Positions 12,422-47,329 of a DNA stretch of 64,000 nucleotides are shown piece after piece; within the stretch, counting starts at the first letter, position 1; every line of letters starts with the position of its first letter. The position numbers were made by a program, and so were the translations under genes. The stretch lies in contig OX359191.1 of NCBI GenBank assembly GCA_947172415.1, positions 6,324,001-6,388,000 on the forward strand. Reading direction: 5' to 3'. This stretch comes from Chondrosia reniformis (lineage: Eukaryota; Porifera; Demospongiae; Chondrillida; Chondrillidae). The notes beneath the pieces were generated by a model. It worked only from the letters and a program-made list of their open reading frames with translations, searched no databases and had not been told where the DNA came from.

Positions 12422-12581
12422 ATGATGGAAATTCTGCAAGCTCTCTTTCGACTGTTACTTGCGGAATACATTGTACTTGGTGAGTTAAAGTCATTTTCAA
12501 TCTAATGGACCTTCTACATCAAGTCTGCTATCATTATAGGTTACGCTGCGCCCTTAGTTTCCAGTCAAACAAGTGGAGATG
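12422..12581 (+). CDS. Signal peptide and N-terminal exons of the giant receptor gene
   Basis: Tandem ATGs at 12422 and 12425 begin [20 protein letters not shown], then donor gtgagt at 12480. Exon 12540-12581 gives [13 protein letters not shown] and ends at a gttagt donor, in phase 1 with the SRCR exon at 13204. The hydrophobic run followed by small residues fits a signal peptide cleaved near YAA. The paralogue at 47170 encodes the same peptide with P-A-V in place of L-A-E, which supports the start. Upstream in-frame ATGs are absent. Confidence 0.65.
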
Positions 12582-15500
12582 GTTAGTGCTAAATGTAGGA
12601 GCGAAATTACACCAGTTAGATTTAATAAGGAATCGTTGGTCGTTTTCTGTTTTACTATCGCATATATATATTACAACCCGTTTCGTAACTTTGACCGGTT
12701 TCGAAACGGGTCGGACGGTTTCGAAACGGGTCGGACGGTTTCGAAACGGGTCGGACGGTTTCGAAACCGGGCGACCTGCTATGAAGCCGGGCGACCACCA
12801 TCGAACTATCCAAAGATTGGCAAGTTTGCCGCCGTTACCGCAACAAAGTTGCTAAATACTAGTAAAGCTTGATCGCTTTATTTAAAGGCCACTATATTCT
12901 ACTGATACCATTATACAATCGCTAAATACAAGGGACTCCATATTAATGGGATTTACAATATGTTAAACCTTTTTATACGTATATATTTTTTAAATGTATT
13001 TATAGGGTATACGATATACTGACGACAGTATTAGAATTATTTAAGATCGATTTCGTATATAAGGAAGTCTCAGTTCGGTCTGGTATATAATTTGACAGAT
13101 TTGCTCCGCTCTTTAGTAACGCCCTAGAAGTTGTGAAACGGGTCGACCGGTTTTGAAGCGGGTTAGTTTGGGTAACGGGTCGTAACATATATATGTTTTA
13201 TAGTTCGATTAGCTGATGGCGATGCTAGCAGTGGTCGTCTAGAGGTTTATTACAACGGACAATGGGGTACAGTGTGTGATGATAGGTGGGACCTCAATGA
13301 TGGTAATGTCGTGTGCAGACAACTTGGATTTAGAGATGCCATCAGAGTACGCACTAGTGCTTATTTTGGTGCTGGATCCGGCAGTATCTGGTTAGACGAG
13401 GTGGCTTGTACAGGAAGTGAAAGTAGAATATCAAACTGTTCGCACAATGGTTGGGGAGTGGAGGATTGTAGCCATACAGAAGATGCAGGAGTAGAATGTG
13501 GAGGTGAATACCAATGAAAGTAATCTATACAGGGTATCTTGTTATTTATTGAAGCTTACCTCACATTCTAGACCTTGGAGCCTGTAGAGGTGTGAGCTGC
13601 GCTAATGGAGGAACCTGTGTAGATGGAAACTGCACATGTGTGGAAGGATATAAAGGAGATCGGTGCACTGAACTAGACAGTGAGTTGTGCATGGATATTG
13701 TGAATTCTTTGATATAGAAATCCAATTCTCTTTCATGTCTCAGTTAAAGTACGCCTTGCTGATGGCAATTCAAGTAGTGGTCGAGTTGAGGTTCTGTACA
13801 ACGGAGAATGGGGCACAGTGTGTGACGATGGATGGGACATCAATGATGGCAGAGTAGTCTGCAGAGAACTTGGCTATGACACTGCCAGTGGTGTGTTTGG
13901 GAATGCTCATTTTGGAGAAGGCACTGGAACCATATGGCTGGATGATGTGGCTTGCACTGGCAGTGAAGATAAGCTATCTAATTGTTCACATAACGGTTGG
14001 GGTATTGAAAACTGTCAACATTCTGAAGATGCTGGAGTGACTTGTGGAAGTTAGTCCATCAAGCTTTTACTCAGTTAATGTAACTGTAAATTAAAGTTTT
14101 CTGTACTTTACACTTTAGGTAATACAAGTTGTAGTGGTGTGAACTGTGCTAACGGAGGAACCTGTGTAGATGGAAACTGCACATGTGTGGAAGGATATAA
14201 AGGAGATCGGTGCACTGAACTAGACAGTGAGTTGTGCATGGATATTGTGAATTCTTTGATATAGAAATCCAATTCTCTTTCATGTCTCAGTTAAAGTACG
14301 CCTTGCTGATGGCAATTCAAGTAGTGGTCGAGTTGAGGTTCTGTACAACGGAGAATGGGGCACAGTGTGTGACGATGGATGGGACATCAATGATGGCAGA
14401 GTAGTCTGCAGAGAACTTGGCTATGACACTGCCAGTGGTGTGTTTGGGAATGCTCATTTTGGAGAAGGCACTGGAACTATATGGTTGGATGATGTGGCGT
14501 GCACTGGCAGTGAAGATAAGCTATCTAACTGTTCACATAACGGTTGGGGTATCGAAAACTGTAACCATTTTGAAGATGCTGGAGTGACTTGTGGAAGTTA
14601 GTCCATCAAGCTTTTCCTCAGTTAATGTAACTGTAAATTAAAGTTTTCTGTACTTTACACTTTAGCTAATGCATGTACTGGTGTGAACTGTGCTAACGGA
14701 GGAACCTGTGTAAATGGAAACTGCACATGTGTGGAAGGATATAAAGGAGATCGGTGCACTGAACTAGACAGTGAGTTGTGCATGGATATTGTGAATTTTT
14801 TGATATAGAAATCCAATTCTCTTTCATGTCTCAGTTAAAGTACGCCTTGCTGATGGCAATTCAAGTAGTGGTCGAGTTGAGGTTCTGTACAACGGAGAAT
14901 GGGGCACAGTGTGTGACGATGGGTGGGACATCAATGATGGCAGAGTAGTCTGCAGAGAACTTGGCTATGACACTGCCAGTGGTGTGTTTGGGAATGCTCA
15001 TTTTGGAGAAGGCACTGGAACTATATGGTTGGATGATGTGGCTTGCACTGGCAGTGAAGATAAGCTATCTAACTGTTCACATAACGGTTGGGGTATTGAA
15101 AACTGTAACCATTTTGAAGATGCTGGAGTGACTTGTGGAAGTTAGTCCATCAAGCTTTTACTCAGTTAATGTAACTGTAAATTAAAGTTTTCTGTACTTT
15201 ACACTTTAGCTAATGCATGTACTGGTGTGAACTGTGCTAACGGAGGAACCTGTGTAAATGGAAACTGCACATGTGTGGAAGGATATAAAGGAGATCGGTG
15301 CACTGAACTAGACAGTGAGTTGTGCATGGATATTGTGAATTCTTTGATATAGAAATCCAATTCTCTTTCATGTCTCAGTTAAAGTACGCCTTGCTGATGG
15401 CAATTCAAGTAGTGGTCGAGTTGAGGTTCTGTACAACGGAGAATGGGGCACAGTGTGTGACGATGGGTGGGACATCAATGATGGCAGAGTAGTCTGCAGA

Positions 15501-18500
15501 GAACTTGGCTATGACACTGCCAGTGGTGTGTTTGCGAATGCTCATTTTGGAGAAGGCACTGGAACCATATGGCTGGATGATGTGGCTTGCACTGGCAGTG
15601 AAGATAAGCTATCTAATTGTTCACATAACGGTTGGGGTATTGATAACTGTCAACATTCTGAAGATGCTGGAGTGACTTGTGGAAGTTAGTCCATCAAGCT
15701 TTTACTCAGTTAATGTAACTGTAAATTAAAGTTTTCTGTACTTTACACTTTAGGTAATACAAGTTGTAGTGGTGTGAACTGTGCTAACGGAGGAACCTGT
15801 GTAGATGGAAACTGCACATGTGTGGAAGGATATAAAGGAGATCGGTGCACTGAACTAGACAGTGAGTTGTGCATGGATATTGTGAATTCTTTGATATAGA
15901 AATCCAATTCTCTTTCATGTCTCAGTTAAAGTACGCCTTGCTGATGGCAATTCAAGTAGTGGTCGAGTTGAGGTTCTGTACAACGGAGAATGGGGCACAG
16001 TGTGTGACGATGGATGGGACATCAATGATGGCAGAGTAGTCTGCAGAGAACTTGGCTATGACACTGCCAGTGGTGTGTTTGGGAATGCTCATTTTGGAGA
16101 AGGCACTGGAACTATATGGTTGGATGATGTGGCGTGCACTGGCAGTGAAGATAAGCTATCTAACTGTTCACATAACGGTTGGGGTATCGAAAACTGTAAC
16201 CATTTTGAAGATGCTGGAGTGACTTGTGGAAGTTAGTCCATCAAGCTTTTACTCAGTTAATGTAACTGTAAATTAAAGTTTTCTGTACTTTACACTTTAG
16301 CTAATGCATGTACTGGTGTGAACTGTGCTAACGGAGGAACCTGTGTAAATGGAAACTGCACATGTGTGGAAGGATATAAAGGAGATCGGTGCACTGAACT
16401 AGACAGTGAGTTGTGCATGGATATTGTGAATTTTTTGATATAGAAATCCAATTCTCTTTCATGTCTCAGTTAAAGTACGCCTTGCTGATGGCAATTCAAG
16501 TAGTGGTCGAGTTGAGGTTCTGTACAACGGAGAATGGGGCACAGTGTGTGACGATGGGTGGGACATCAATGATGGCAGAGTAGTCTGCAGAGACCTTGGC
16601 TATGACACTGCCAGTGGTGTGTTTGGGAATGCTCATTTTGGAGAAGGCACTGGAACTATATGGTTGGATGATGTGGCGTGCACTGGCAGTGAAGATAAGC
16701 TATCTAATTGTTCACATAACGGTTGGGGTATTGAAAACTGTCAACATTCTGAAGATGCTGGAGTGACTTGTGGAAGTTAGTCCATCAAGCTTTTACTCAG
16801 TTAATGTAACTGTAAATTAAAGTTTTCTGTACTTTACACTTTAGCTAATGCATGTACTGGTGTGAACTGTGCTAACGGAGGAACCTGTGTAAATGGAAAC
16901 TGCACATGTGTGGAAGGATATAAAGGAGATCGGTGCACTGAACTAGACAGTGAGTTGTGCATGGATATTGTGAATTTTTTGATATAGAAATCCAATTCTC
17001 TTTCATGTCTCAGTTAAAGTACGCCTTGCTGATGGCAATTCAAGTAGTGGTCGAGTTGAGGTTCTGTACAACGGAGAATGGGGCACAGTGTGTGACGATG
17101 GATGGGACATCAATGATGGCAGAGTAGTCTGCAGAGAACTTGGCTATGACACTGCCAGTGGTGTGTTTGGGAATGCTCATTTTGGAGAAGGCACTGGAAC
17201 TATATGGTTGGATGATGTGGCGTGCACTGGCAGTGAAGATAAGCTATCTAACTGTTCACATAACGGTTGGGGTATCGAAAACTGTAACCATTTTGAAGAT
17301 GCTGGAGTGACTTGTGGAAGTTAGTCCATCAAGCTTTTCCTCAGTTAATGTAACTGTAAATTAAAGTTTTCTGTACTTTACACTTTAGCTAATGCATGTA
17401 CTGGTGTGAACTGTGCTAACGGAGGAACCTGTGTAAATGGAAACTGCACATGTGTGGAAGGATATAAAGGAGATCGGTGCACTGAACTAGACAGTGAGTT
17501 GTGCATGGATATTGTGAATTTTTTGATATAGATATCCAATTCTCTTTCATGTCTCAGTTAAAGTACGCCTTGCTGATGGCAATTCAAGTAGTGGTCGAGT
17601 TGAGGTTCTGTACAACGGAGAATGGGGCACAGTGTGTGACGATGGGTGGGACATCAATGATGGCAGAGTAGTCTGCAGAGAACTTGGCTATGACACTGCC
17701 AGTGGTGTGTTTGGGAATGCTCATTTTGGAGAAGGCACTGGAACTATATGGTTGGATGATGTGGCTTGCACTGGCAGTGAAGATAAGCTATCTAACTGTT
17801 CACATAACGGTTGGGGTATTGAAAACTGTAACCATTTTGAAGATGCTGGAGTGACTTGTGGAAGTTAGTCCATCAAGCTTTTACTCAGTTAATGTAACTG
17901 TAAATTAAAGTTTTCTGTACTTTACACTTTAGGTAATACAAGTTGTAGTGGTGTGAACTGTGCTAACGGAGGAACCTGTGTAGATGGAAACTGCACATGT
18001 GTGGAAGGATATAAAGGAGATCGGTGCACTGAACTAGACAGTGAGTTGTGCATGGATATTGTGAATTCTTTGATATAGAAATCCAATTCTCTTTCATGTC
18101 TCAGTTAAAGTACGCCTTGCTGATGGCAATTCAAGTAGTGGTCGAGTTGAGGTTCTGTACAACGGAGAATGGGGCACAGTGTGTGACGATGGGTGGGACA
18201 TCAATGATGGCAGAGTAGTCTGCAGAGAACTTGGCTATGACACTGCCAGTGGTGTGTTTGCGAATGCTCATTTTGGAGAAGGCACTGGAACCATATGGCT
18301 GGATGATGTGGCTTGCACTGGCAGTGAAGATAAGCTATCTAATTGTTCACATAACGGTTGGGGTATTGATAACTGTCAACATTCTGAAGATGCTGGAGTG
18401 ACTTGTGGAAGTTAGTCCATCAAGCTTTTACTCAGTTAATGTAACTGTAAATTAAAGTTTTCTGTACTTTACACTTTAGGTAATACAAGTTGTAGTGGTG

Positions 18501-21500
18501 TGAACTGTGCTAACGGAGGAACCTGTGTAGATGGAAACTGCACATGTGTGGAAGGATATAAAGGAGATCGGTGCACTGAACTAGACAGTGAGTTGTGCAT
18601 GGATATTGTGAATTTTTTGATATAGAAATCCAATTCTCTTTCATGTCTCAGTTAAAGTACGCCTTGCTGATGGCAATTCAAGTAGTGGTCGAGTTGAGGT
18701 TCTGTACAACGGAGAATGGGGCACAGTGTGTGACGATGGATGGGACATCAATGATGGCAGAGTAGTCTGCAGAGAACTTGGCTATGACACTGCCAGTGGT
18801 GTGTTTGGGAATGCTCATTTTGGAGAAGGCACTGGAACTATATGGTTGGATGATGTGGCGTGCACTGGCAGTGAAGATAAGCTATCTAACTGTTCACATA
18901 ACGGTTGGGGTATCGAAAACTGTAACCATTTTGAAGATGCTGGAGTGACTTGTGGAAGTTAGTCCATCAAGCTTTTCCTCAGTTAATGTAACTGTAAATT
19001 AAAGTTTTCTGTTCTTTACACTTCAGCTAATGCATGTACTGGTGTGAACTGTGCTAACGGAGGAACCTGTGTAAATGGAAACTGCACATGTGTGGAAGGA
19101 TATAAAGGAGATCGGTGCACTGAACTAGACAGTGAGTTGTGCATGGATATTGTGAATTTTTTGATATAGAAATCCAATTCTCTTTCATGTCTCAGTTAAA
19201 GTACGCCTTGCTGATGGCAATTCAAGTAGTGGTCGAGTTGAGGTTCTGTACAACGGAGAATGGGGCACAGTGTGTGACGATGGGTGGGACATCAATGATG
19301 GCAGAGTAGTCTGCAGAGAACTTGGCTATGACACTGCCAGTGGTGTGTTTGGGAATGCTCATTTTGGAGAAGGCACTGGAACTATATGGTTGGATGATGT
19401 GGCTTGCACTGGCAGTGAAGATAAGCTATCTAACTGTTCACATAACGGTTGGGGTATTGAAAACTGTAACCATTTTGAAGATGCTGGAGTGACTTGTGGA
19501 AGTTAGTCCATCAAGCTTTTACTCAGTTAATGTAACTGTAAATTAAAGTTTTCTGTACTTTACACTTTAGCTAATGCATGTACTGGTGTGAACTGTGCTA
19601 ACGGAGGAACCTGTGTAAATGGAAACTGCACATGTGTGGAAGGATATAAAGGAGATCGGTGCACTGAACTAGACAGTGAGTTGTGCATGGATATTGTGAA
19701 TTCTTTGATATAGAAATCCAATTCTCTTTCATGTCTCAGTTAAAGTACGCCTTGCTGATGGCAATTCAAGTAGTGGTCGAGTTGAGGTTCTGTACAACGG
19801 AGAATGGGGCACAGTGTGTGACGATGGGTGGGACATCAATGATGGCAGAGTAGTCTGCAGAGAACTTGGCTATGACACTGCCAGTGGTGTGTTTGCGAAT
19901 GCTCATTTTGGAGAAGGCACTGGAACCATATGGCTGGATGATGTGGCTTGCACTGGCAGTGAAGATAAGCTATCTAATTGTTCACATAACGGTTGGGGTA
20001 TTGATAACTGTCAACATTCTGAAGATGCTGGAGTGACTTGTGGAAGTTAGTCCATCAAGCTTTTACTCAGTTAATGTAACTGTAAATTAAAGTTTTCTGT
20101 ACTTTACACTTTAGGTAATACAAGTTGTAGTGGTGTGAACTGTGCTAACGGAGGAACCTGTGTAGATGGAAACTGCACATGTGTGGAAGGATATAAAGGA
20201 GATCGGTGCACTGAACTAGACAGTGAGTTGTGCATGGATATTGTGAATTCTTTGATATAGAAATCCAATTCTCTTTCATGTCTCAGTTAAAGTACGCCTT
20301 GCTGATGGCAATTCAAGTAGTGGTCGAGTTGAGGTTCTGTACAACGGAGAATGGGGCACAGTGTGTGACGATGGATGGGACATCAATGATGGCAGAGTAG
20401 TCTGCAGAGAACTTGGCTATGACACTGCCAGTGGTGTGTTTGGGAATGCTCATTTTGGAGAAGGCACTGGAACTATATGGTTGGATGATGTGGCGTGCAC
20501 TGGCAGTGAAGATAAGCTCTCTAACTGTTCACATAACGGTTGGGGTATCGAAAACTGTAACCATTTTGAAGATGCTGGAGTGACTTGTGGAAGTTAGTCC
20601 ATCAAGCTTTTACTCAGTTAATGTAACTGTAAATTAAAGTTTTCTGTACTTTACACTTTAGCTAATGCATGTACTGGTGTGAACTGTGCTAACGGAGGAA
20701 CCTGTGTAAATGGAAACTGCACATGTGTGGAAGGATATAAAGGAGATCGGTGCACTGAACTAGACAGTGAGTTGTGCATGGATATTGTGAATTCTTTGAT
20801 TTAGAAATCCAATTCTCTTTCATGTCTCAGTTAAAGTACGCCTTGCTGATGGCAATTCAAGTAGTGGTCGAGTTGAGGTTCTGTACAACGGAGAATGGGG
20901 CACAGTGTGTGACGATGGGTGGGACATCAATGATGGCAGAGTAGTCTGCAGAGACCTTGGCTATGACACTGCCAGTGGTGTGTTTGGGAATGCTCATTTT
21001 GGAGAAGGCACTGGAACTATATGGTTGGATGATGTGGCGTGCACTGGCAGTGAAGATAAGCTATCTAATTGTTCACATAACGGTTGGGGTATTGAAAACT
21101 GTCAACATTCTGAAGATGCTGGAGTGACTTGTGGAAGTTAGTCCATCAAGCTTTTACTCAGTTACTGTAACTGTAAATTAAAGTTTTCTGTACTTTACAC
21201 TTTAGCTAATGCATGTACTGGTGTGAACTGTGCTAACGGAGGAACCTGTGTAAATGGAAACTGCACATGTGTAGAAGGATATAAAGGAGATCGGTGCACT
21301 GAACTAGACAGTGAGTTGTGCATGGATATTGTGAATTCTTTGATATAGAAATCCAATTCTCTTTCATGTCTCAGTTAAAGTACGCCTTGCTGATGGCAAT
21401 TCAAGTAGTGGTCGAGTTGAGGTTCTGTACAACGGAGAATGGGGCACAGTGTGTGACGATGGGTGGGACATCAATGATGGCAGAGTAGTCTGCAGAGAAC

Positions 21501-24500: not shown

Positions 24501-27500
24501 TGCTAACGGAGGAACCTGTGTAAATGGAAACTGCACATGTGTGGAAGGATATAAAGGAGATCGGTGCACTGGACTAGACAGTGAGTTGTGCATGGATATT
24601 GTGAATTCTTTGATATAGAAATCCAATTCTCTTTCATGTCTCAGTTAAAGTACGCCTTGCTGATGGCAATTCAAGTAGTGGTCGAGTTGAGGTTCTGTAC
24701 AACGGAGAATGGGGCACAGTGTGTGACGATGGATGGGACATCAATGATGGCAGAGTAGTCTGCAGAGAACTTGGCTATGACACTGCCAGTGGTGTGTTTG
24801 GGAATGCTCATTTTGGAGAAGGCACTGGAACTATATGGTTGGATGATGTGGCGTGCACTGGCAGTGAAGATAAGCTATCTAACTGTTCACATAACGGTTG
24901 GGGTATCGAAAACTGTAACCATTTTGAAGATGCTGGAGTGACTTGTGGAAGTTAGTCCATCAAGCTTTTACTCAGTTAATGTAACTGTAAATTAAAGTTT
25001 TCTGTACTTTACACTTTAGCTAATGCATGTACTGGTGTGAACTGTGCTAACGGAGGAACCTGTGTAAATGGAAACTGCACATGTGTGGAAGGATATAAAG
25101 GAGATCGGTGCACTGAACTAGACAGTGAGTTGTGCATGGATATTGTGAATTCTTTGATATAGAAATCCAATTCTCTTTCATGTCTCAGTTAAAGTACGCC
25201 TTGCTGATGGCAATTCAAGTAGTGGTCGAGTTGAGGTTCTGTACAACGGAGAATGGGGCACAGTGTGTGACGATGGGTGGGACATCAATGATGGCAGAGT
25301 AGTCTGCAGAGAACTTGGCTATGACACTGCCAGTAGTGTGTTTGGGAATGCTCATTTTGGAGAAGGCACTGGAACCATATGGCTGGATGATGTGGCTTGC
25401 ACTGGCAGTGAAGATAAGCTATCTAATTGTTCACATAACGGTTGGGGTATTGAAAACTGTCAACATTCTGAAGATGCTGGAGTGACTTGTGGAAGTTAGT
25501 CCATCAAGCTTTTACTCAGTTAATGTAACTGTAAATTAAAGTTTTCTGTACTTTACACTTTAGGTAATACAAGTTGTAGTGGTGTGAACTGTGCTAACGG
25601 AGGAACCTGTGTAGATGGAAACTGCACATGTGTGGAAGGATATAAAGGAGATCGGTGCACTGAACTAGACAGTGAGTTGTGCATGGATATTGTGAATTCT
25701 TTGATATAGAAATCCAATTCTCTTTCATGTCTCAGTTAAAGTACGCCTTGCTGATGGCAATTCAAGTAGTGGTCGAGTTGAGGTTCTGTACAACGGAGAA
25801 TGGGGCACAGTGTGTGACGATGGGTGGGACATCAATGATGGCAGAGTAGTCTGCAGAGAACTTGGCTATGACACTGCCAGTGGTGTGTTTGGGAATGCTC
25901 ATTTTGGAGAAGGCACTGGAACTATATGGTTGGATGATGTGGCTTGCACTGGCAGTGAAGATAAGCTATCTAACTGTTCACATAACGGTTGGGGTATCGA
26001 AAACTGTAACCATTTTGAAGATGCTGGAGTGACTTGTGGAAGTTAGTCCATCAAGCTTTTACTCAGGTAATGTAACTGTAAATTAAAGTTTTCTGTACTT
26101 TACACTTTAGCTAATGCATGTACTGGTGTGAACTGTACTAACGGAGGAACCTGTGTAAATGGAAACTGCACATGTGTGGAAGGATATAAAGGAGATCGGT
26201 GCACTGAACTAGACAGTGAGTTGTGCATGGATATTGTGAATTCTTTGATATAGAAATCCAATTCTCTTTCATGTCTCAGTTAAAGTGCGCCTTGCTGATG
26301 GCAATTCAAGTAGTGGTCGAGTTGAGGTTCTGTACAACGGAGAATGGGGCACAGTGTGTGACGATGGGTGGGACATCAATGATGGCAGAGTAGTCTGCAG
26401 AGAACTTGGCTATGACACTGCCAGTAGTGTGTTTGGGAATGCTCATTTTGGAGAAGGCACTGGAACCATATGGCTGGATGATGTGGCTTGCACTGGCAGT
26501 GAAGATAAGCTATCTAACTGTTCACATAACGGTTGGGGTATTGAAAACTGTAACCATTTTGAAGATGCTGGAGTGACTTGTGGAAGTTAGTCCATCAAGC
26601 TTTTACTCAGTTACTATAACTGTAAATTAATGTTTTGTGTACTTTACACTTTAGCTAATGCATGTACTGGTGTGAACTGTGCTAACGGAGGAACCTGTGT
26701 AGATGGAAACTGCACATGTGTGGAAGGATATAAAGGAAATCGGTGCACTGAACTAGACAGTGAGTTGTGCATGGATAGTGTGAATTCTTTGATATAGAAA
26801 TCCAATTCTCTTTCATGTCTCGTGTGCACAATTACGGAAATCGGCAGAAAGGCCGAGGTATGGGGAAATGTTCACGTTTTTATTTTCATAAACCCATGCT
26901 GATTCGTGAAAATCACGAAATTTACGTCCCGCAAAGATTTGTACACATACAGTTTTACTTTTTTCAGGGTCTTAGAAAGTATTTTAAAAATTGAACAAAA
27001 TGATAGTTCAACCTTCAACTATCAATCTAAACGTACAGTTTAGTTTAGATCTTTTGGTTCATCTGTGACTGATGGATTGGATCTTCAGTAACCTTCTATA
27101 TATAGATTCCCTTGTTACATCCAAAAGATGTGCTGGATGTTTGTATCCTACTAAATGTCTGCCCATCAAACCTGTCGTTTACAGTATGTATAAAAATTGT
27201 TGATTTTGACTTGATAGTTGCTTTTTGGAAAAAAAATTACAAATTGAAACAGGTGTGCTGAAGTGCTTTATGACAAATTTTAACCTTTTAATCTAGACTG
27301 TATAGGGCAAATATACATACCCAATAACCACTGATCCGCTATCTGCCACCATGTTTTGGACCAATCCATCTTAACAAAATTAATATTTATTAGTATGCAC
27401 TTCGTAATCCATTGAATGTGTAGGAGTGAAACTGCATAATTATGCAAGACTCTCTGAGTTATAGACGATACCAACTTTAATAGACAGATTTAATGAATTC

Positions 27501-30500
27501 AACAAAAAAGACAGATTAAGTGTAACATACGTACATTTAAGTGGAGTTTTACCAACAAGTAGACTAAAGTAAATTATTACATATACCTGTTCCTAACTTG
27601 AAAAATACATATGAAGTCACTAAGTATTTGAATTGTGGCGACTCCTACGTATATATAATACAACTTACTGCTACTCCAGGATTATCCACATATATTGGAA
27701 GTAGAACAAGTGAACAGCCTTCTGCTACTCCAGGAGTATCCACATATGTTGGAAGTGGAACAAGTAGACAGCTTTCTGCTACTTCAGGATTTTCCACATA
27801 TATTGAAGGCGGAACAAGTGAACTGCCTTCTGCTACTCCAGAAATATCTACAAATACTGGAAGTGGAACAAGTGAACTTCCTTCTGCTACTCCAGAAACA
27901 TCTACGAATACAGTAACTCGAACAAGTGAACTTCTTTCTGCTACTCCAGAAACATCTACGAATACTGGAACAAGTAAACTGCCTTCTGCTACTCCAGAAA
28001 CATCTACGAATACTGGAACTGGAACAAGTAAACTTCCTTCTGCTACTCGAGAAACATCTACCAATATTGGAACTCGAACAAGTGAACTTCCTTCTGCTAC
28101 TCCAGAAACATCTACGAATACTATAACTCGAACAAGTGAACTTCCTTCTGCTACTCCAGAAACATCTACAAATACTGGAACTGGAACAAGTGAACTTCCT
28201 TCTGCTACTCCAGAAACATCTACGAATACTGGAACAAGTAAACTGCCTTCTGCTACTCCAGAAACATCTACGAATACTGGAACTGGAACAAGTGAACTTC
28301 CTTCTGCTACTCCAGAAACATCTACCAATATTGGAACTCGAACAAGTGAACTTCCTTCTGCTACTCCAGAAATATCTACAAATACTGGAAGTGGAACAAG
28401 TGAACTTCCTTCTGCTACTCCAGAAACATCTACGATTACTGTAACTCGAACAAGTGAACTTCCTTCTGCTACTCCAGAAACATCTACAAATACTGGAACT
28501 GGAACAAGTGAACTTCCTTCTGCTACTCCAGAAACATCTACGAATACTGAAACTGGAACTAGTGAACAGCCTTCTGCTACTCCAGAAACATCTACGAATA
28601 CTGGAAGTGGAACAAGTGAACTGCCTTCTGCCACTCCAGAAACATCTACCAATACTGGAACAGGTGTACAGCCTTCTGCCACTCCAGAAACATCTACGAA
28701 TACTGGAACTGGAACAAGTAAACTTCCTTCTGCCACTCCAGAAACATCTACGAATACTGGAAGTGGAACAAGTGAACTTCCTTCTGCTACTCCAGAAACA
28801 TCGACCAATATTGGAAGTGGAACAAGTGAACTTCCTTCTGCTACTCCAGAAACATCTACGAATACTGAAACTGGAACAAGTGAACAGCCTTCTGCTACTC
28901 CAGAAACATCTACGAATACTGGAAGTGGAACAAGTGAACTGCCTTCTGCCACTCCAGAAACATCTACCAATACTGGAACTCAAACAAGTGAACTTCCTTC
29001 TGCTACTCCAGAAACATCTACGAATACTGGAACAAGTAAACTGCCTTCTGTTACTCCAGAAACATCTACGAATACTGGAACTAGAACAAGTGAACTTCCT
29101 TCTGCTACTCCAGAAACATCTACGAATACTGGAAGTGGAACAAGTGAACTGCCTTCTGCCACTCCAGAAACATCTACCAATACTGGAACTCAAACAAGTG
29201 AATTTCCTTCTGCTACTCCAGAAACATCTACGAATACTGGAACAATTAAACTGCCTTCTGTTACTCCAGAAACATCTACAAATACTGGAAGTGGAACAAG
29301 TGAACTTCCTTCAGCTACTCCAGAAACATCTACAAATACTGGAACTGGAACAAGTGAACTTCCTTCTGCCACTCCAGAAACATCTACGAATACTGGAAGT
29401 GGAACAAGTGAACAGCCTTCTGCTACTCCAGAAACATCTACGAATACTGGAAGTGGAACAAGTGAACATCCTTCTGCTACTCCAGAAACATCGACCAATA
29501 TTGGAAGTGGAACAAGTGAACTTCCTTCTGCTACTCCAGAAACATCTACGAATACTGAAACTGGAACAAGTGAACAGCCTTCTGCTACTCCAGAAACATC
29601 TACGAATACTGGAAGTGGAACAAGTGAACAGCCTTCTGCCACTCCAGAAACATCTACCAATACTGGAACTCAAACAAGTGAACTTCCTTCTGCTACTCCA
29701 GAAACATCTACGAATACTGGAACAAGTAAACTGCCTTCTGTTACTCCAGAAACATCTACGAATACTGGAACTAGAACAAGTGAACTTCCTTCTGCTACTC
29801 CAGAAACATCTACGAATACTGGAAGTGGAACAAGTGAACTGCCTTCTGCCACTCCAGAAACATCTACCAATACTGGAACTCAAACAAGTGAATTTCCTTC
29901 TGCTACTCCAGAAACATCTACGAATACTGGAACAATTAAACTGCCTTCTGTTACTCCAGAAACATCTACAAATACTGGAAGTGGAACAAGTGAACTTCCT
30001 TCAGCTACTCCAGAAACATCTACAAATACTGGAACTGGAACAAGTGAACTTCCTTCTGCCACTCCAGAAACATCTACGAATACTGGAAGTGGAACAAGTG
30101 AACAGCCTTCTGCTACTCCAGAAACATCTACGAATACTGGAACTCGAACAAGTGAACTTCCTTCTGCTACTCCAGAAACATCTACAAATACTGGAACTGG
30201 AACAAGTGAACTTTCTTCAGCTACTCCAGAAACATCTACGAATACTGGAAGTGGAACAAGTGAACAGCCTTCTGCTACTCCAGAAACATCTACGAATACT
30301 GGAACAAGTAAACTGCCTTCTGCTACTCCAGAAACATCTATGAATACTGGAAGTGGAACAAGTGAACTTCCTTCTGCTACTCCAGAAACATCTACGAATA
30401 CTGGAAGTGGAACAAGTGAACTTCCTTCTGCTACTCCAGAAACATCTACGAATACTGGAAGTGGAACAAGTGAACTTCCTTCTACTACTCCAGAAACATC

Positions 30501-33500
30501 TACCAATACTGGAACTGGAACAAGTGAACATCCTTCTGCTACTCCAGAAACATCTACGAATGCTGGAACTCAAACAAGTGAACTTCCATCTGCTACTCCA
30601 GAAACATCTACGAACACAGGAACTCGAACAAGTGAACTTCCTTCTGCTACTCCAGAAACATCTACGAATACTGGAAGTGGAACAAGTGAACTTCCTTCTG
30701 TTACTCCAGAAACATCTACCAATACTGGAAGTGGAACAAGTGAACAGCCTTCTGCTACTCCAGAAACATCTACGAATACTGGAAGTGGAACAAGTGAACT
30801 TCCTTCTGCTACTCCAGAAACATCTACGAATACTGGAAGTGGAACAAGTGAACTTCCTTCTGCTACTCCAGAAACATCTACGAATACTGGAAGTGGAACA
30901 AGTGAACATCCTTCTGCTACTCCAGAAACATCTACGAATACTGGAACTCGAACAAGTGAACTTCCATCTGCTACTCCAGAAACATCTATGAACACTGGAA
31001 CTCGAACAAGTCAACTTCCTTCTGCTACTCCAGAAACATCTACGAATACTGGAAGTGGAACAAGTGAACTTCCTTCTGTTACTCCAGAAACATCTACCAA
31101 TACTGGAAGTGGAACAAGTGAACAGCCTTCTGCTACTCCAGAAACATCTACAAATACTGGTACTCGAACAAGTGAACTTCCTTTTACTACTCCAGAAACA
31201 TCTACGAATACTGTAAGTGGAACAAGTGAACTTCCTTCTGCTACTCCAGAAACATCTACGAATACTGGAAGTGGAACAAGTGAACTTCCTTCTGTTACTC
31301 CAGAAGCATCTACCAACACTGGAACTCGGACAAGTGAACAGCCTTCTGCTACTCCAGAAACATCTACGAATACTGGAACTGGAACAAGTGAACTACATTC
31401 TGGTACTTCAACTGGTAAGATGAATATTTGTTTGTTAAAGCAGTAAATTGTACAATGTACGCTTTTGCACAGAATCTGATATTCAAATCTCAACAGTAGA
31501 TGTATCTACAGAGACTGAAGCTACAGTAACAAAACAGCCACTTCCTACTTCTACAGGTATTGTTTATTTGTTTTGAATTATATCATACTGTGACCACATG
31601 GAGTGTGTTTCAATGTTTCTAGTTTCTATTTGCCCAAATGTGAATGAGAACATTAACAATCAAAGATTAAAGACAATCTTCCACTGGCCAGCAACTCAAG
31701 CTGGAGTAGAAGCTCGTCTTCACTGTGATTGCCAGAGATACCCTCAGTTCAGCAATGGATTGTTTGCCTTTAAGAACTGCAGTAACAGTGGATTATGGGA
31801 GAATACGTATTTGGAACCTTGTGTGGTATCAGACATCTTTAGGAGTCTTTGTAGTGGAGTAAGCTAAGTATATGGGTCATAATGGATTTAATGTGTTTTA
31901 TTTTATTTCTGCTGGCCCAACAGACATTTCCCTGTATTAGCTTATACCTTATCGCCTTAGGAAATGGACCTTATGGTCTTTTTGGTTGTGTTAATTAATC
32001 AATCAAAGTGAAAGTATATGTGTTCAAGTTTAACTAAGTAGAAGGCAGTTGTGGTATGATTATTCAGTTAAGAAGGCTTTCTTTATTTATTTAGGTTATT
32101 GTAAATGTTTTGGATAATTTGGAGAATCTAACCAAGTCAGCATCCAAAGCAAGTGATATTGGATTGGTGATGAATGTTATCAGGGAGTTGTTATCTATTT
32201 CAGACATTGCACTTGATGCTAAGGTAACTTACGTATAATACATAAATAATGTCTGGAATACTTTGCAGCAATAAGTCATGTGATTCTGCTCCCAATGAAT
32301 TAATTTTTCTAATGCTGCATAGTGTTTCAAGCACATAATTGTACAGTGATTTTATCTAACGGAAGATACTCCATCTAAAGATGTACCGTATTTGTTCAAA
32401 TAGAGATCCAATCCTGTATTTAATTCCTGTCATTTTTGGCCCAGCCTCTATTTGAGCCTGGCTTCAATTAAACATTCTCTTGGCATCCACGCCTATCTCC
32501 CTAGCAGCTGCTTCCTTAGTCTTCTTTGCAGAGCACTTCACAGCCTTTAGCTTGAAGGAAACATCATAGGATGTACTCTCTGATTTTATTACTTGACTTG
32601 AGAGATCTGATTCTACCTCTATATAGTTGAGACTTGGTCTCTATACAGACAAATATGGTACATTAATGTATGTAAATCTGCCTAATTAGTTGTTTTAACC
32701 ACAACTTCAAAAGGTTCCAATAAACAATTTTAATAAATTGCTCTTTTACAGATTAGAGGAAATATTTTAGATGCACTGGATATACTCTTATTTGAAGCAA
32801 ACGATGCAACATTGGCAGATGCTAGTGTTTCGACACAAGCACCACAGATGTAAGCAAAATGCAATTTATTCTTTTGAGGCTGATAAATTAATTATTATTA
32901 TTACATGGTATCTTATTGCTTGTTTCAAAGTCTCTTAATGATAGATGATTTCTTATGGTCTCTTAATGATAGATTTTTGGCTGCACTCTCATCAGTAGCG
33001 AACCATATACAGTTGTTTGATGACATACTTATTATTGAGAAAAGGGCATACACGTTTTCAGTTGATGAAATCCAAGTTTCCAAAGTGCCTCCCTCTGGTT
33101 ACAAGCCAAACTTGGGTAATAAGGTTGGTGTGAGTGTCACTATTCCACAAGCAGCGTTCCTAAGCTTGGGGACAAGCAGTGTTCGTATGATCAGTTCTGT
33201 TCTTCACAAACCCACCCTCTTTGATGGAAGCAATGAAACAGTTTCTACATTCAGTGATATAATATCAGTTAGGTTCTTGGGAAGTATTGTGAATGACCTG
33301 GATACTCCTATAATCTTTGCTGTGCAGAAGTTACAGGTATACCTTATATTTGTATGTATAGTACAATGTCATACATACGTATATATATATATATATACCT
33401 TATTAGAGGATACTGATACATGAACAATGTATATTTTTCATGTGTGCATAATCTACAATTAACACTAGAATCATCTTGTAAAAGGAGGAAAGGCCGCATG

Positions 33501-34588
33501 TCAGTCATGGAAGAATGAAAACATTAAAGGTCAGATATATAGGCAACATGGGGGAGCATTGCTGTGACAATTGTAACTCAGTGACAGATCACTGGTTGTC
33601 ATAACCAGCTATCCTTAGTTCAATTCCCAACAATTGCTTCTTACTTCTTGCTACTTTTTATTGTTTTCAGAAATTAGGTTTAAATATGGCTTCCTGTTCT
33701 GTCAACAAAATGGCAGATGCTTGTTGGCTGGCTTTTGCTTTCTAGCTTAAAAATTCCTTTGCATCAAACATTGAACCAATGAAAAGGATTTAGAAACCAC
33801 CTTTTACTAATACTATGTAACGTAAAGCTTGTTTTCTACGAGATTGGGCATTCAAGCGACGAGCGGAATCGGTTAACTGGACATCTAAGAACCAGCAAGT
33901 AATTGGGTGCCAGGTGCACCAGGAGTTTTTTAAACTCAAAATACTTGTTTCCTCTTCTTGATGTTAAATATTAATATGAGTTTCACTTTGATTATTCATA
34001 CATGTGTATTGGTATATGTACACAATGACTGTGTACTTTTTATGTTAAGGTATCTATGGAACATGGAGTGAGGATGGATGTAAACTGCAACATGAGAACT
34101 TTACTCATATCACCTGTTATTGTGATCACTTTGGAGACTATGCTGCCATCCAGGTTAGCTAGCTTATTTGACTGGGATGTTTCAAATAATCTGTTACAAC
34201 GTCTCTTCATGCAGATTAAAGACACTATGTCTTTTGTGGGCACTGATGTAGGAGAAGAATTTCCTTCTACAATTGTAGCCATTGTTTGTGTTGTAGCTGT
34301 TCTTATAATAACAGCTGCTGTTGTAGCAGGAATAATTTGTCTTGTTTTGAGGTAAATATATTTTATTTTAACACATTTAGTGAAGGCATGCACTACACCA
34401 TATATTAACATAATACAGTGCATAATGGCTAGCTATTTCCCTTTTAAAAATTTAGAAGGAAAAGCCATCGAAAGAAGGTTCAACTAGTTACCGAAGAATG
34501 TGAATTCAAGGCGAATCCAAATGTGATGATTACTAATGAAAAAGCTATAGAACTAGATCAGGATGGAATTGCTGATTCAGAGGCATAA
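12422..34588 (+). CDS. Giant SRCR/EGF-mucin-HRM-GAIN-GPS single-pass receptor-like protein
   Basis: Exons in order: 12422-12479 and 12540-12581 (signal peptide and N-terminus); 13204-13503 SRCR; 13572-13679 EGF; 24 SRCR-EGF pairs in 13744-26759; mucin-like exon about 27617-31414; 31473-31556 linker; 31623-31858 HRM domain; 32095-32223, 32752-32849 and 32973-33336 GAIN; 34050-34153 GPS; 34215-34351 transmembrane; 34456-34588 tail, stop TAA at 34586-34588. I predict about 5,100-5,200 residues, type I at the cell surface, with a large adhesive ectodomain on a Ser/Thr-rich stalk. GAIN-GPS is the hallmark of adhesion GPCRs and polycystins, yet only one helix follows. Weak points are the mucin acceptor, the GAIN-GPS junction (33337-34049, phase 0 to phase 1, so a small exon is missing) and assembly of the array. 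It could be two transcripts split near 26.8-27.6 kb. Confidence 0.65.
12671..13190. mobile_element. Non-autonomous DNA-transposon-like insertion in the third exon's intron
   Basis: The paralogous intron at 47330-47428 runs straight from tactaccgcatatatatg to the acceptor. Here about 520 bases intervene. The insertion begins ttacaacccgtttcg and ends with gggtaacgggtcgtaac, whose reverse complement (gttacgacccgtta) is an imperfect inverted match to the start. Flanks on both sides are tatata-rich, possibly the target duplication. It has no coding capacity. The subterminal part carries a CG-rich 20-base minisatellite unlike the AT-rich surroundings. Confidence 0.65.
12691..12772 (+). repeat. 20-base CG-rich minisatellite
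   Basis: The unit tcgaaacgggtcggacggtt is repeated exactly three times (12701-12760), with partial, diverged copies on either side. It contains two CpG per unit in a genome segment otherwise poor in CpG. Related words (gaaacgggtcgaccggtttt) recur at 13136-13155 near the other end of the insertion. Confidence 0.9.
13204..13679 (+). CDS. First, diverged SRCR exon and EGF exon of the giant receptor gene
   Basis: Exon 13204-13503 (100 codons, phase 1-1) begins [20 protein letters not shown] and carries the six SRCR cysteines (TVCDD, VVCRQLG, VACTG, ISNC, VEDC, VEC). Exon 13572-13679 is an EGF domain ([16 protein letters not shown] and so on). Both are closer to the first pair of the paralogue (47429-47894) than to the 24 units that follow. 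The array therefore expanded downstream of an old, conserved first unit. Confidence 0.85.
13744..26759 (+). repeat. 24-unit near-identical SRCR-EGF coding array (544/547-base units)
   Basis: Each unit is an SRCR exon (306), intron 69, EGF exon (105 or 108) and intron 64. SRCR exons start at 13744, 14291, 14835, 15379, 15926, 16470, 17014, 17558, 18105, 18652, 19196, 19740, 20287, 20831, 21375, 21922, 22469, 23013, 23557, 24101, 24645, 25189, 25736 and 26280. The EGF exon starts 70 bases after each SRCR end. All 24 frames are intact. SRCR variants are few: [16 protein letters not shown] or DNCQHSED ends, F-G or F-A after GV, RELGY or RDLGY, ASG or ASS. EGF exons come in two cassettes, beginning NTSCSGV (108 bases; units 1, 4, 8, 9, 12, 15, 16, 22) or NACTGV (105). 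All exons are phase 1-1. The SRCR donor is gttagt, with an in-frame TAG just inside the intron. Confidence 0.93.
26760..27616. other. End of the array and transition to the mucin exon
   Basis: The last unit's intron copies the array until ctctttcatgtct at 26820 and then breaks off just where the acceptor CAG should come. The following sequence (gtgtgcacaattacgg) is unrelated and may be a small insertion ending near 26950 (a gatttgtacacatac stretch is its imperfect inverted match). I see no exon between here and the mucin exon. The acceptor at 27615-27616 (atgaag) has the right phase but a poor pyrimidine tract. Confidence 0.5.
27617..31414 (+). CDS. Mucin-like Ser/Thr/Pro-rich stalk exon
   Basis: One uninterrupted frame of about 1,266 codons, ending at donor gtaaga in phase 1. 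It is built almost wholly from an 18-residue unit, [18 protein letters not shown] and variants (GTGTSE, GTRTSE, GTQTSE, TSEQ, TSEH), with some 16-residue units lacking two residues ([10 protein letters not shown]). Threonine, serine and proline dominate and there is no cysteine, so I infer a heavily O-glycosylated extended stalk between the SRCR/EGF head and the membrane-proximal domains. The first three units (27661-27800) are the most diverged. Long open frames in the other five frames are by-products of the repeat. The 5' boundary is uncertain. Confidence 0.75.
27670..31395 (+). repeat. 54-base coding minisatellite, about 70 copies
   Basis: The tandem unit is 54 bases (occasionally 48), with a core such as gctactccagaaacatctac. 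A larger block of about 690 bases is duplicated inside it: the run containing [14 protein letters not shown] and [10 protein letters not shown] near 29190-29270 recurs near 29880-29960. Copy number is likely to vary between individuals. Confidence 0.92.
31473..31556 (+). CDS. Short linker exon of the giant receptor gene
   Basis: A 28-codon phase 1-1 exon (acceptor tgcacag, donor gtattg) reading [20 protein letters not shown], then KQPLPTST. It continues the Ser/Thr-rich stalk outside the 18-residue repeat. Confidence 0.65.
31623..31858 (+). CDS. Hormone-receptor-motif (HRM)-like domain exon
   Basis: After acceptor tttctag the exon reads [19 protein letters not shown], then [17 protein letters not shown], then [18 protein letters not shown], and ends in phase 0 at donor gtaagc. 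WPxTxAGxxAxxxC and NCxxxGxW...C are the hallmarks of the HRM domain found before the GAIN domain in many adhesion GPCRs. The position just ahead of the GAIN exons agrees with that. The ligand is unknown. Confidence 0.8.
32095..33336 (+). CDS. GAIN domain exons
   Basis: Exons 32095-32223 (phase 0), 32752-32849 (0-2) and 32973-33336 (2-0). The first two give helical sequence ([38 protein letters not shown]), the GAIN subdomain A pattern. The third gives strands typical of subdomain B ([24 protein letters not shown]). In known proteins this fold ends in the GPS motif and autoproteolyses. The next exon starts in phase 1, so a small exon with the first GPS cysteine and tryptophan may lie unrecognised in 33337-34049, or the third exon uses a later donor. 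Confidence 0.72.
33337..34049. other. Unresolved GAIN-GPS intron
   Basis: The phases on either side (0 out, 1 in) do not match, so at least one short exon of length 1 modulo 3, or an alternative donor, is needed. I searched for a C-x-[FY]-W type exon and found no convincing one. The rest is AT-rich with no recognisable element. Confidence 0.5.
34050..34153 (+). CDS. GPS motif exon
   Basis: In phase 1 from acceptor tgttaag the exon reads [12 protein letters not shown], then [20 protein letters not shown], and ends in phase 0 at donor gttagc. W-x3-GC ... C-x-C-x-H-F-x2-[FY]A is the GPROTEOLYSIS SITE pattern. The usual cleavage tripeptide H-L-[ST] is H-F-G here, so self-cleavage is doubtful. 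Other frames of this stretch are open but show no homology. Confidence 0.8.
34215..34588 (+). CDS. Single transmembrane helix and cytoplasmic tail
   Basis: Exon 34215-34351 gives [19 protein letters not shown], then a helix of about 27 residues ([18 protein letters not shown] to GIICLVL). Exon 34456-34588 begins [18 protein letters not shown], a basic stop-transfer, and ends QDGIADSEA with TAA. The tail is about 44 residues, has no tyrosine and shows no known signalling motif. No further hydrophobic helices occur before the stop, so this is a single-pass protein and not a seven-helix receptor. GEEFPST after the GPS corresponds to the tethered-agonist/linker region in adhesion GPCRs. Confidence 0.82.
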
Positions 34589-36603: not shown

Positions 36604-36941
36604 ATGAAATTAGTTGGAGCCACCATCCTATTGACCACTATTGCAATCCTCTTTGGATGGACAGTTGAAGCTAAACGTAAGCATCCCAAACAAATTCCTA
36701 AGTAAGAATCCACAGGCTATGTATGTTTTCTATATATGTATTACAGCTGCCCCTACTACCAGTACTACTACTACTACAAGTCCTGCTACTACCAGCAGTA
36801 ACAACCAACTCTGGTGCATTCCTGTTCTCCCTGGTCACCCTGGATTATCTAGTCTCTGCTGTGACAACTCAACACAGGAGGTTATGATGCTGAAGGACAA
36901 AGTTTGTCAGCTAATTGATATAGTCAACACTACCACGAATG

Positions 36942-37755
36942 GTAAGTGTGTAAGGAGAGATATCCCATTGTTGCTTAGTTATTATATACAAATCCATATG
37001 AACTGTATCTTCCTAATATGTCTTCATATATTAAGTTACATTTTTCTCTTTTTAAAGCCCTGTTAATTCAATGAATACTATATAGGCAGAAATACATTGT
37101 GATTATCTAAGCTACAAATATTACAAATATCACTAAAATAATTCAATAAAAACTAATTCTACAATGTCATGTTATGTACATATAAACCTAACCTGAGAAG
37201 GCATAAATGGTATACCCTTTAACATCAGAATGAAACCTCACTTAACTAACTAAAACTCTAATAATAACTCTCCGTTTCCTGCAAATTTGATTGAGGTTTA
37301 ACAATGTACAGTATAACCAAATAAATTTCCTTCAATAGTCTATAGTCTAAACTGTATGTATACACCTACATATATGTGAAACAAGTCACAATTTACATAT
37401 TATTATTTGGTGACTCCATAGTTCTTGAAATGCTTAGCTTAATTCTTATTTAATCCTGGATAGAGTGTAGTTTTTGAATCGTAATCTACATATTTCCCAA
37501 AGCTGAAGTCACATATGTATAGTGCTATTAGTGCATATTCAATGAAGTGAATCTTGAAAATAGTCAGTTATAACAATTTCAGTAAAAGTTAAATAGTTAG
37601 TTAATGAGTCAGTGATGTAAATTAAAAGTAATATGTATTCCTATAAACATCCATCATATCATTGAGGATCTTAGAGAAGAAAGGAGTGTTCCATAAAACA
37701 GACCCTTCAAATACTAGTCACCATAGCAACCCACCTGATGAGGCTCGGTACCAAT
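36942..37755. other. AT-rich stretch between the FReD exon and the CPSF1 fragment
   Basis: The first 420 bases (to about 37360) recur after the second copy of the FReD exon at 42455-42760. The rest shows no coding or element signature. Confidence 0.5.
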
Positions 37756-42185: not shown

Positions 42186-42239
42186 TCATTGCTTTATATA
42201 CCAAAAGCCTCTCATCCACCACACTCTATAAACAACACA

Positions 42240-47169: not shown

Positions 47170-47329
47170 ATGATGGTAATTCTGCAGGCTCTCTTTCGAC
47201 TGTTACCTGCAGTATACATTGTACTTGGTGAGTAAAAGTCGTTTTCAATCTAAAGGACCTTCTACATCAAGTCTACTATCATTATAGGTTACGCTGCGCC
47301 CTTAGTTTCCAGTCAAACAAGTGGAGATG
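47170..47329 (+). CDS. Signal peptide and N-terminal exons of the second giant gene
   Basis: Tandem ATGs at 47170 and 47173 begin [20 protein letters not shown]. The second exon gives [13 protein letters not shown]. The hydrophobic core and the small residues at the end fit a cleaved signal peptide. It is nearly identical to 12422-12581, and the intron between this exon pair and the first SRCR lacks the 520-base insertion found in the other gene. Confidence 0.72.

What the first reader, a model, noticed from the sequence alone, without database searches (positions are those of the whole stretch)
12422..34588. Receptor with an adhesion-GPCR-like stalk (HRM-GAIN-GPS) on an SRCR/EGF/mucin ectodomain and only one membrane helix
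Seen: in-phase exons for signal peptide, 25 SRCR and 25 EGF domains, mucin repeats, HRM motif, GAIN strands, GPS motif, one helix and a tail with stop. Known: HRM-GAIN-GPS normally precedes seven helices (adhesion GPCRs) or many helices (polycystin-1). Inference: a distinct receptor class in which the mechanosensitive or tethered-agonist module is attached to a single-pass anchor, perhaps for cell recognition in a sponge.
Basis: partly seen in the sequence, partly recalled or inferred. Interest (0 to 1): 0.88.

Follow-up and report, generated by a model that had tools for sequence, protein, structure and literature searches.

The report
Single-pass mucin receptor with GPCR-type stalk
This animal gene appears to encode a giant cell-surface receptor that carries the membrane-proximal module of adhesion GPCRs on a single membrane helix, and it has relatives in the same genome that also have one helix where adhesion GPCRs have seven.

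Summary
One plus-strand gene model at 12422-34588 reads through 61 exons with GT-AG introns and matching phases: exon 1, 25 SRCR/EGF pairs, a 1,245-aa mucin-type exon, linker, HRM, GAIN, GPS, one helix, a 44-aa tail and a stop. The first half of the GPS sits in a small exon (33469-33529) found by comparison with paralogues; without it the frame breaks. GPS passes Pfam's cut-off; GAIN-B/GPS alone matches only adhesion GPCRs in the PDB (17 of 17 hits at E<=10, 8 of them at E<=0.001). It has relatives: of 94 GPS matches in the genome, 62 are followed by a 7tm_2 match and 32 are not. I examined 25 of the 32: 22 (this gene included) have one strong helix, one is uncertain, two look seven-helix. Against the tethered-agonist idea: the cleavage site reads HF|G instead of H-x-S/T, a His-supporting Phe is Ser, and there is no 7TM in cis. 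Best reading: a probably uncleaved single-pass relative of adhesion GPCRs. New variant of a known kind; expression, ligand and function are untested.

The parts
12422..12479 (+). Exon 1, start codons at 12422 and 12425, weak signal-peptide-like sequence
   Evidence: model starts at 12425; similar reading in tandem paralogue 2 at about 47179; the least certain exon
13204..13503 (+). SRCR domain 1, diverged from the others (69-70% aa identity to them)
13572..26759 (+). EGF1 followed by 24 further SRCR/EGF exon pairs, every 544 or 547 bp; SRCR2-25 exons 96-100% identical in DNA, introns 98-99% on average
27680..31414 (+). Mucin-type exon, 1,245 aa, about 70 copies of a 54-bp (18-aa) Ser/Thr/Pro-rich unit
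   Evidence: Ser/Thr/Pro-rich frames in the same place in paralogue 3, C10b and C5a
31497..31556 (+). Linker exon (Thr-rich)
   Evidence: near-identical sequence in paralogue 3
31623..31858 (+). HRM (hormone receptor motif) exon
32095..32223 (+). GAIN subdomain A, first exon (assignment by position between HRM and GAIN-B)
32752..32849 (+). GAIN subdomain A, second exon (assignment by position)
32931..33336 (+). GAIN subdomain B exon
   Evidence: PDB matches
33469..33529 (+). First half of the GPS (C-Q-S-W), small exon needed to keep the frame
   Evidence: found from paralogues L003 and L007; conserved in L001 and L002; in frame
34050..34153 (+). Second half of the GPS; cleavage position reads His-Phe|Gly
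34215..34351 (+). Single transmembrane helix exon
   Evidence: mean hydropathy 3.26; next segment above 1.9 on this strand about 2.3 kb on
34456..34588 (+). Short cytoplasmic tail (44 aa with the residue shared with the helix exon; basic juxtamembrane stretch, no Tyr) and stop codon

Best explanation
A giant single-pass cell-surface receptor built on an adhesion-GPCR-type ectodomain base. A multivalent SRCR/EGF array (25 SRCR domains, 24 of them nearly identical) binds a repetitive ligand such as a microbial or matrix glycan; a long, probably O-glycosylated mucin stalk lifts it above the cell coat; an HRM-GAIN-GPS module sits on the membrane; one helix and a 44-aa tail anchor it. The GAIN domain has most likely lost self-cleavage, so it would work as a covalently continuous, folded, force-bearing collar rather than a source of a tethered agonist. 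Signalling would be by clustering through tail adaptors, or by lateral pairing with a seven-helix adhesion GPCR, as described for Drosophila Cirl 1TM/7TM and for worm LAT-1 lacking TM2-7. Shown here by sequence: domain order, one helix, stop, loss of the cleavage residues, constraint on the GAIN/GPS exons, and related genes with one helix. Inferred: one mature mRNA, surface display, ligand class, glycosylation, lack of cleavage, signalling route.
For: Open 61-exon model. GPS above Pfam cut-off. GAIN-B/GPS of this gene finds only adhesion GPCRs in the PDB (17 of 17 at E<=10, 8 at E<=0.001); an 11-sequence profile gives 23 of 24 at E<=1, best 1.1e-16. HRM found in 10 of 10 exons scanned. SRCR - Ser/Thr stalk - HRM order in paralogues 2 and 3, C10b and C5a; in C10a an SRCR exon directly precedes HRM. 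Helix, tail and stop read in full in L001, L002, L003, L006, L007. 22 of 25 examined GPS loci without a 7tm_2 match have one strong helix (strongest segment 2.78-3.77) within 1.1 kb. GAIN-B search: 13 exons, all in loci of that set. dN/dS over GAIN+GPS 0.19-0.47 in six comparisons. HF|G and C-Q-S-W at the cleavage site, read against PMC13062082 and PMC11697300 passages. Function without TM2-7 and without cleavage: LAT-1 fertility role (PMC3776922 passages).
Against: No transcript joins the SRCR/EGF array to the HRM-GAIN-GPS part; the 920-bp intron between EGF25 and the mucin exon is the weakest join. The signal peptide is weak. HRM is borderline in this member and Pfam GAIN does not match. The hydropathy scan alone cannot exclude extra weak helices: helices of the seven-helix-looking L038 score only 2.0-2.4. 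Ligand, glycosylation and partner are inferred only, and the tail shows no recognised motif. PMC13062082 reports that restoring the Phe (with other changes) in ADGRB2 gave little cleavage, so Phe loss alone is weak evidence; the Gly at the nucleophile position is the stronger point. LAT-1 without TM2-7 did not rescue its polarity role.
Confidence: 0.6

Rival explanations
1. A decayed or truncated adhesion GPCR that lost TM2-7 recently and is becoming a pseudogene.
For: The same genome has SRCR-HRM-GPS-7tm_2 series: three on the minus strand of C3 at 5.51-5.67 Mb by order of matches. L018 has a stop inside its HRM exon, so some relatives may be broken.
Against: Open frame across 61 exons; dN/dS below 0.5 in all six GAIN+GPS comparisons, although the helix (0.70) and tail (1.27) against the closest paralogue L002 rest on 3 and 6 changes and show nothing; one helix and a stop kept in tandem and distant paralogues; GAIN-B hits confined to one-helix loci, 13 of 13.
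Confidence: 0.12
2. Two neighbouring genes: a secreted SRCR/EGF protein (12.4-26.8 kb) and a separate mucin-HRM-GAIN-GPS one-helix receptor (27.6-34.6 kb).
For: A 920-bp stretch without array sequence lies between EGF25 and the mucin exon; no cDNA.
Against: EGF25 ends at a GT donor and the mucin exon begins after an AG, both in phase 1. SRCR arrays precede the same module on the same strand in three C3, two C10 and three C5 genes; Ser/Thr-rich frames with different repeats occupy the same slot in C10b and C5a, and in C10a an SRCR exon directly precedes HRM.
Confidence: 0.13
3. Seven-helix isoforms exist through distal exons, so the one-helix form is only one isoform, as for Drosophila Cirl.
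For: Cirl is expressed as 7TM and 1TM forms (PMC13197933 passage).
Against: No 7tm_2 match listed on C3 above 5.63 Mb; no segment above 1.9 hydropathy on the plus strand from the helix to about 36.6 kb; a separate tail exon with a stop, kept in both tandem paralogues.
Confidence: 0.05
4. A polycystin-1/REJ family protein with one helix, like SpREJ1, 8 and 9.
For: Those sea-urchin proteins have GPS and one predicted helix (PMC1934368 passages).
Against: GAIN-B/GPS matches adhesion GPCRs in the PDB, but PMC11697300 says that no experimental PKD1 GAIN structure was available, so this comparison could not have shown a PKD1 match; HRM precedes the GAIN; no PLAT match at this locus (3 in the genome). 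REJ was not tested.
Confidence: 0.04

Closest known systems
SRCR-bearing adhesion GPCRs of the sponge Amphimedon (Aq712029, Aq715659; PMC4302439, passages)
   Same: SRCR repeats in an adhesion-GPCR ectodomain; HRM and GPS occur in sponge adhesion GPCRs
   Different: Classified there by a 7tm_2 domain; here one helix and a short tail, plus EGF pairs and a mucin stalk
Drosophila Cirl 1TM variant (PMC13197933, passage and reference title)
   Same: Adhesion-GPCR ectodomain on one helix; proposed to pair with the 7TM form
   Different: A variant of a 7TM gene by intron retention, not a separate one-helix gene
C. elegans LAT-1 deltaTM2-7 constructs (PMC3776922, passages)
   Same: GPS on one helix works without TM2-7 and without cleavage in the fertility role
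   Different: Engineered truncation; did not rescue the polarity role
Sea-urchin SpREJ1, 8 and 9 (PMC1934368, passages)
   Same: GPS before a single predicted helix in a large modular receptor
   Different: PKD1/REJ family; no HRM, SRCR or mucin stalk in the passages read
EMR2-1TM truncation (PMC12488864, passages)
   Same: GAIN-GPS ectodomain on the first helix alone reaches the cell surface
   Different: Artificial and cleavable; this gene lacks the nucleophile

Membership tests
Adhesion GPCR (class B2) | GAIN domain with GPS directly before the first helix | tested here: met
   GPS 33.4 bits against a 22.5 cut-off; GAIN-B/GPS against the PDB; Pfam GAIN itself does not match
Adhesion GPCR (class B2) | Seven-helix 7tm_2 domain | tested here: not met
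   No 7tm_2 match listed near the locus; one helix, then tail and stop. Filed as a relative, not a member
Adhesion GPCR (class B2) | H-x-S/T self-cleavage motif (not universal: ten of 32 human receptors lack it, PMC13062082 passage) | tested here: not met
   His-Phe-Gly here, in L001 and L002; His-Leu-Gly in L006; the other 18 of the 22 clear one-helix loci keep H-x-S/T
Adhesion GPCR (class B2) | HRM N-terminal to GAIN (in many members) | tested here: met
   Exon at the Pfam cut-off (26.2 bits), below it in the longer translation (20.9); 10 of 10 exons match; 35 of 36 PDB hits of their profile at E<=1 are class B receptors, best E 6.5e-4; the exon alone finds nothing in the PDB
PKD1/REJ | PLAT domain after the first helix | tested here: not met
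   3 PLAT matches in the genome, none on C3; the tail is 44 aa
PKD1/REJ | REJ domain | not tested
   searches did not complete
SRCR superfamily receptor | SRCR domains on a membrane-anchored protein | tested here: met
   SRCR E 1.8e-65 over the two copies in the scanned piece; 25 copies in the model
Transmembrane mucin | Ser/Thr/Pro tandem repeats on a membrane-anchored protein | tested here: met
   glycosylation not testable
Transmembrane mucin | SEA domain before the helix (many members; recalled) | tested here: not met
   No SEA match at E<=1 in the linker-to-tail translation

The most novel reading that the evidence does not exclude
A third animal GAIN-protein family beside adhesion GPCRs and PKD1: a repertoire of dedicated one-helix HRM-GAIN-GPS receptors (at least 22 loci in this genome) with exchangeable SRCR, EGF and mucin ectodomains and varied short tails, one branch carrying an array of tyrosine motifs, acting as recognition receptors on their own or as partners of the seven-helix adhesion GPCRs of the same genome; the C3 branch has given up self-cleavage and is a purely mechanical version.
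Probability: 0.4. Interest if true: 0.82.

Novelty: new variant of a known kind. Interest (0 to 1): 0.62.

Why it matters
PMC11697300 (2025; [quoted passage not shown] A set of one-helix GAIN receptors in an animal would give natural test objects for an open question: what the GAIN-GPS module does apart from presenting a tethered agonist to seven helices. Loci with and without the cleavage residues sit in one genome, so cleavage-dependent and cleavage-independent roles could be compared directly. It would also add to the recognition receptors of what is probably an early-branching animal.

Tried and rejected
Pfam GAIN gave no match in the whole genome, so I used PDB sequence searches instead. 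The HRM exon alone found nothing in the PDB; a 10-sequence profile did. The GPS search reported only the second exon; the first half was not recognised in the window alone and needed paralogues. Considered and rejected: pseudogene (open frame, dN/dS), two genes (order and phase kept in relatives), PKD1 type (HRM present, no PLAT), hidden seven-helix exons. Seven of the 32 GPS matches without a 7tm_2 match were not examined. One search also shows further segments of 2.5 or more: L003 (2.53), L007 (2.91, start of the next gene by reading), L018 (2.5), L011 and L015 (two each, beyond 1.1 kb), and in L010 an equal second copy 2.25 kb downstream, which looks like a tandem duplicate. In one search the script ended in an error after printing the table that I use. 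The species was not identified.
Full report
The observation. I rebuilt the gene exon by exon. On the plus strand, exon 1 (12422/12425-12479) is followed by 25 SRCR and 25 EGF exons in alternation (13204-26759), one 3,735-bp mucin-type exon (27680-31414), a linker exon, an HRM exon, two exons placed in GAIN subdomain A, one of subdomain B, two GPS exons, a helix exon and a tail exon ending in TAA at 34588. The 61 exons have GT donors and AG acceptors throughout, compatible phases, and give 5,149 residues from the second Met with one terminal stop. An earlier count said 60 exons; the table counts 61. Exon 1 is the least certain: its signal peptide is weak, and it resembles exon 1 of tandem paralogue 2 but has no counterpart that I could find before paralogue 3.

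The missing exon. The GAIN-B exon ends in phase 0, and the GPS exon that profile search finds starts in phase 1. In paralogues L003 and L007 the first Cys and the F-W of the GPS lie in a small separate exon. The corresponding stretch of the window, 33469-33529, is conserved with tandem paralogues L001 and L002 and restores the frame. With it Pfam GPS covers positions 2-43 of 45 at 33.4 bits against a cut-off of 22.5.

What the module is. HRM scores 20.9 bits in the long translation, below the 26.2 cut-off, 25.3 in the genome search and 26.2 for the exon alone; all 10 HRM exons scanned match the family. A profile of them finds 36 PDB sequences at E<=1, of which 35 are class B receptors, best E 6.5e-4; the exon alone finds none. 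The Pfam GAIN model finds nothing here or in the genome. The GAIN-B/GPS sequence of this gene alone finds 17 PDB sequences at E<=10, all adhesion GPCRs, 8 at E<=0.001, best 9.4e-6; an 11-sequence profile finds 24 at E<=1, of which 23 are adhesion GPCRs, best ADGRG1 at 1.1e-16. PMC11697300 says that no experimental PKD1 GAIN structure was available (passage), so the PDB result cannot exclude PKD1 kinship; the HRM and the absence of PLAT here argue against it. The genome has 3 PLAT matches; two lie beside relative L008 on the other strand.

One helix. After the GPS there is one strongly hydrophobic stretch (mean 3.26), a basic stretch and a 44-aa tail with a stop. The next segment above 1.9 on that strand is about 2.3 kb further on and weak. 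The 7tm_2 search lists nothing on C3 above 5.63 Mb. Tandem paralogue 3 (L002) keeps helix (96% aa identity), tail (83%) and stop; paralogue 2 (L001) keeps one helix and the stop, with diverged sequence. C10 genes L006 and L007 and C5 gene L003, read in full, also have one helix, a tail and a stop.

How widespread. The genome has 94 GPS matches at E<=0.1, 93 of them over the cut-off (counts are lower bounds). For 62 a listed 7tm_2 match lies within 8 kb downstream on the same strand; for 32 there is none. I examined 25 of the 32: this gene, L001-L020 and L036-L039. In a uniform recount 22 of the 25 have a strongest segment of 2.78-3.77 within 1.1 kb of the GPS. L036 (2.51, only 1.3 kb seen) is uncertain; L038 and L039 look seven-helix by several weaker segments. 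Tails with stops were read in full for six loci (window, L001, L002, L003, L006, L007); in L008-L011, L013-L018 and L037 charged readings ending in a stop after the helix exon are visible by eye, not spliced. The scan alone could miss weak helices, since those of L038 score 2.0-2.4. Seven of the 32 were not examined. A genome search with this GAIN-B exon finds 13 exons at E<=0.001, all in loci of the one-helix set and none in a seven-helix locus; the other nine one-helix loci are not reached, so a single origin of all 22 is not shown.

The ectodomain belongs to it. SRCR matches precede HRM and GPS matches on the same strand in three C3, two C10 and three C5 genes. Between SRCR and HRM lie Ser/Thr/Pro-rich open frames: 894 aa with the same kind of repeat in paralogue 3, a short Thr-rich stretch in paralogue 2, 294 aa with other repeats in C10b, 716 aa with yet other repeats in C5a, and none seen in C10a, where an SRCR exon directly precedes HRM (the other two C5 genes were not scanned for this). 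Different repeats in the same slot argue for one gene each (inference). The same genome also has three SRCR-HRM-GPS-7tm_2 series on the minus strand at C3:5.51-5.67 Mb by order of matches, so similar ectodomains sit on both kinds of anchor; a fourth GPS there, at 5.475 Mb, has no 7tm_2 match and was not examined.

The array. SRCR2-25 are 96-100% identical in DNA, with 7 distinct proteins and 6 variable residues; the two kinds of intron average 98.3% and 99.1% identity. This points to recent or ongoing amplification of a 544/547-bp unit; copy number may vary between individuals (inference).

Selection. dN/dS over GAIN+GPS is 0.47 against L002 (11 synonymous and 19 nonsynonymous changes), 0.32 against L001, 0.35 for L001 against L002, 0.31 against L006, 0.19 against L007 (dS 2.4, saturated) and 0.44 for L006 against L007. 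Helix and tail against L002 show 1 and 2, and 1 and 5 changes (ratios 0.70 and 1.27): too few to judge. So the membrane-proximal exons are under moderate constraint.

Cleavage. The scissile position reads His-Phe|Gly here and in L001 and L002, and His-Leu|Gly in L006; the other 18 of the 22 clear one-helix loci keep H-x-S or H-x-T. PMC13062082 (passages) gives H-x-S/T as the motif and names a Phe at position S10.49 that orients the histidine, Ser in the poorly cleaving ADGRB2. PMC11697300 (passage) puts the conserved Trp at S10.50, so S10.49 is the residue before it: Ser in C-Q-S-W here, in L001, L002 and L006, and Phe in L003 and L007, the only H-x-T loci in which I read that exon. The four loci without the nucleophile thus also lack the Phe. 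The same paper reports little gain of cleavage when the Phe and other residues were put into ADGRB2, so the Gly is the stronger argument. Self-cleavage of this receptor is unlikely, and without seven helices a tethered agonist has no target in cis.

How it probably works. Shown by sequence: order, single helix, tail, loss of cleavage residues, constraint, relatives. Inferred: a multivalent SRCR/EGF head binds a repetitive ligand, a mucin stalk holds it out, an uncleaved GAIN collar carries force to one helix; signalling by clustering or by lateral pairing with a seven-helix receptor. Precedents: LAT-1 without TM2-7, also when cleavage-dead, keeps its fertility role but not its polarity role (PMC3776922, passages); a truncated EMR2 with one helix reaches the surface (PMC12488864, passages); Cirl 1TM appears to pair with 7TM (PMC13197933, passage).

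Prior knowledge. Sponge adhesion GPCRs with SRCR repeats and with HRM are published (PMC4302439, passages). SpREJ1, 8 and 9 have GPS and one predicted helix (PMC1934368, passages). [quoted passage not shown] A sponge immune-receptor study (PMC6208332, passages) names one SRCR gene and one GPS gene responding to microbial signals, the latter placed with latrophilin-like adhesion GPCRs. I found no paper describing a dedicated one-helix HRM-GAIN-GPS gene family in the ten searches; the library holds open-licence papers only, and I saw listings and passages, not whole texts.

Verdict. Observation confirmed with one exon added; interpretation partly supported. A new variant of a known kind, of interest because it recurs across the genome and includes loci that have lost the cleavage residues. 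After the recount the one-helix number went from 23 to 22; I left the odds as they were.

Noticed in passing
L003 (C5:4919500-4926000), about 4020-4210: The tail reading of this one-helix relative carries eight copies of a tyrosine motif (YVEV), a possible phosphotyrosine docking array.
   Followed up: partly
L040-L044 (GPS genes with a 7tm_2 match, on C3, C9, C2, C7): In all five fetched, the GPS lacks two of its usual cysteines (GV instead of GC; CES or CET instead of CxC) while keeping HLTSF.
   Followed up: no
window about 47179-64000 and L001: A tandem paralogue with its own SRCR/EGF array, a short Thr-rich stalk and HRM-GAIN-GPS-one helix begins inside the window; a third lies at C3:6.398-6.418 Mb.
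   Followed up: yes
window 598-4940: Part of another SRCR gene (seven SRCR matches) upstream of the finding; no GPS match listed there.
   Followed up: no
window 12696-12767: Perfect 20-bp tandem repeat (3.6 copies) in the first intron.
   Followed up: no
window 7444-7746, minus strand: Open frame resembling a piece of a reverse transcriptase (resemblance recalled, not searched).
   Followed up: no
window 36635-37066 and 42126-42386: Two similar fragments encoding a Thr-rich stretch followed by a Cys-containing segment, apparently a duplication.
   Followed up: no
L018 (C14:1993500-2000500) 1168-1356: An in-frame stop replaces the conserved Trp of the HRM, so this relative may be broken.
   Followed up: no
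L010 (C5:739500-747000), about 4180 and 6430: Two equal strong helix segments 2.25 kb apart, which looks like a tandem duplication of the helix region.
   Followed up: no
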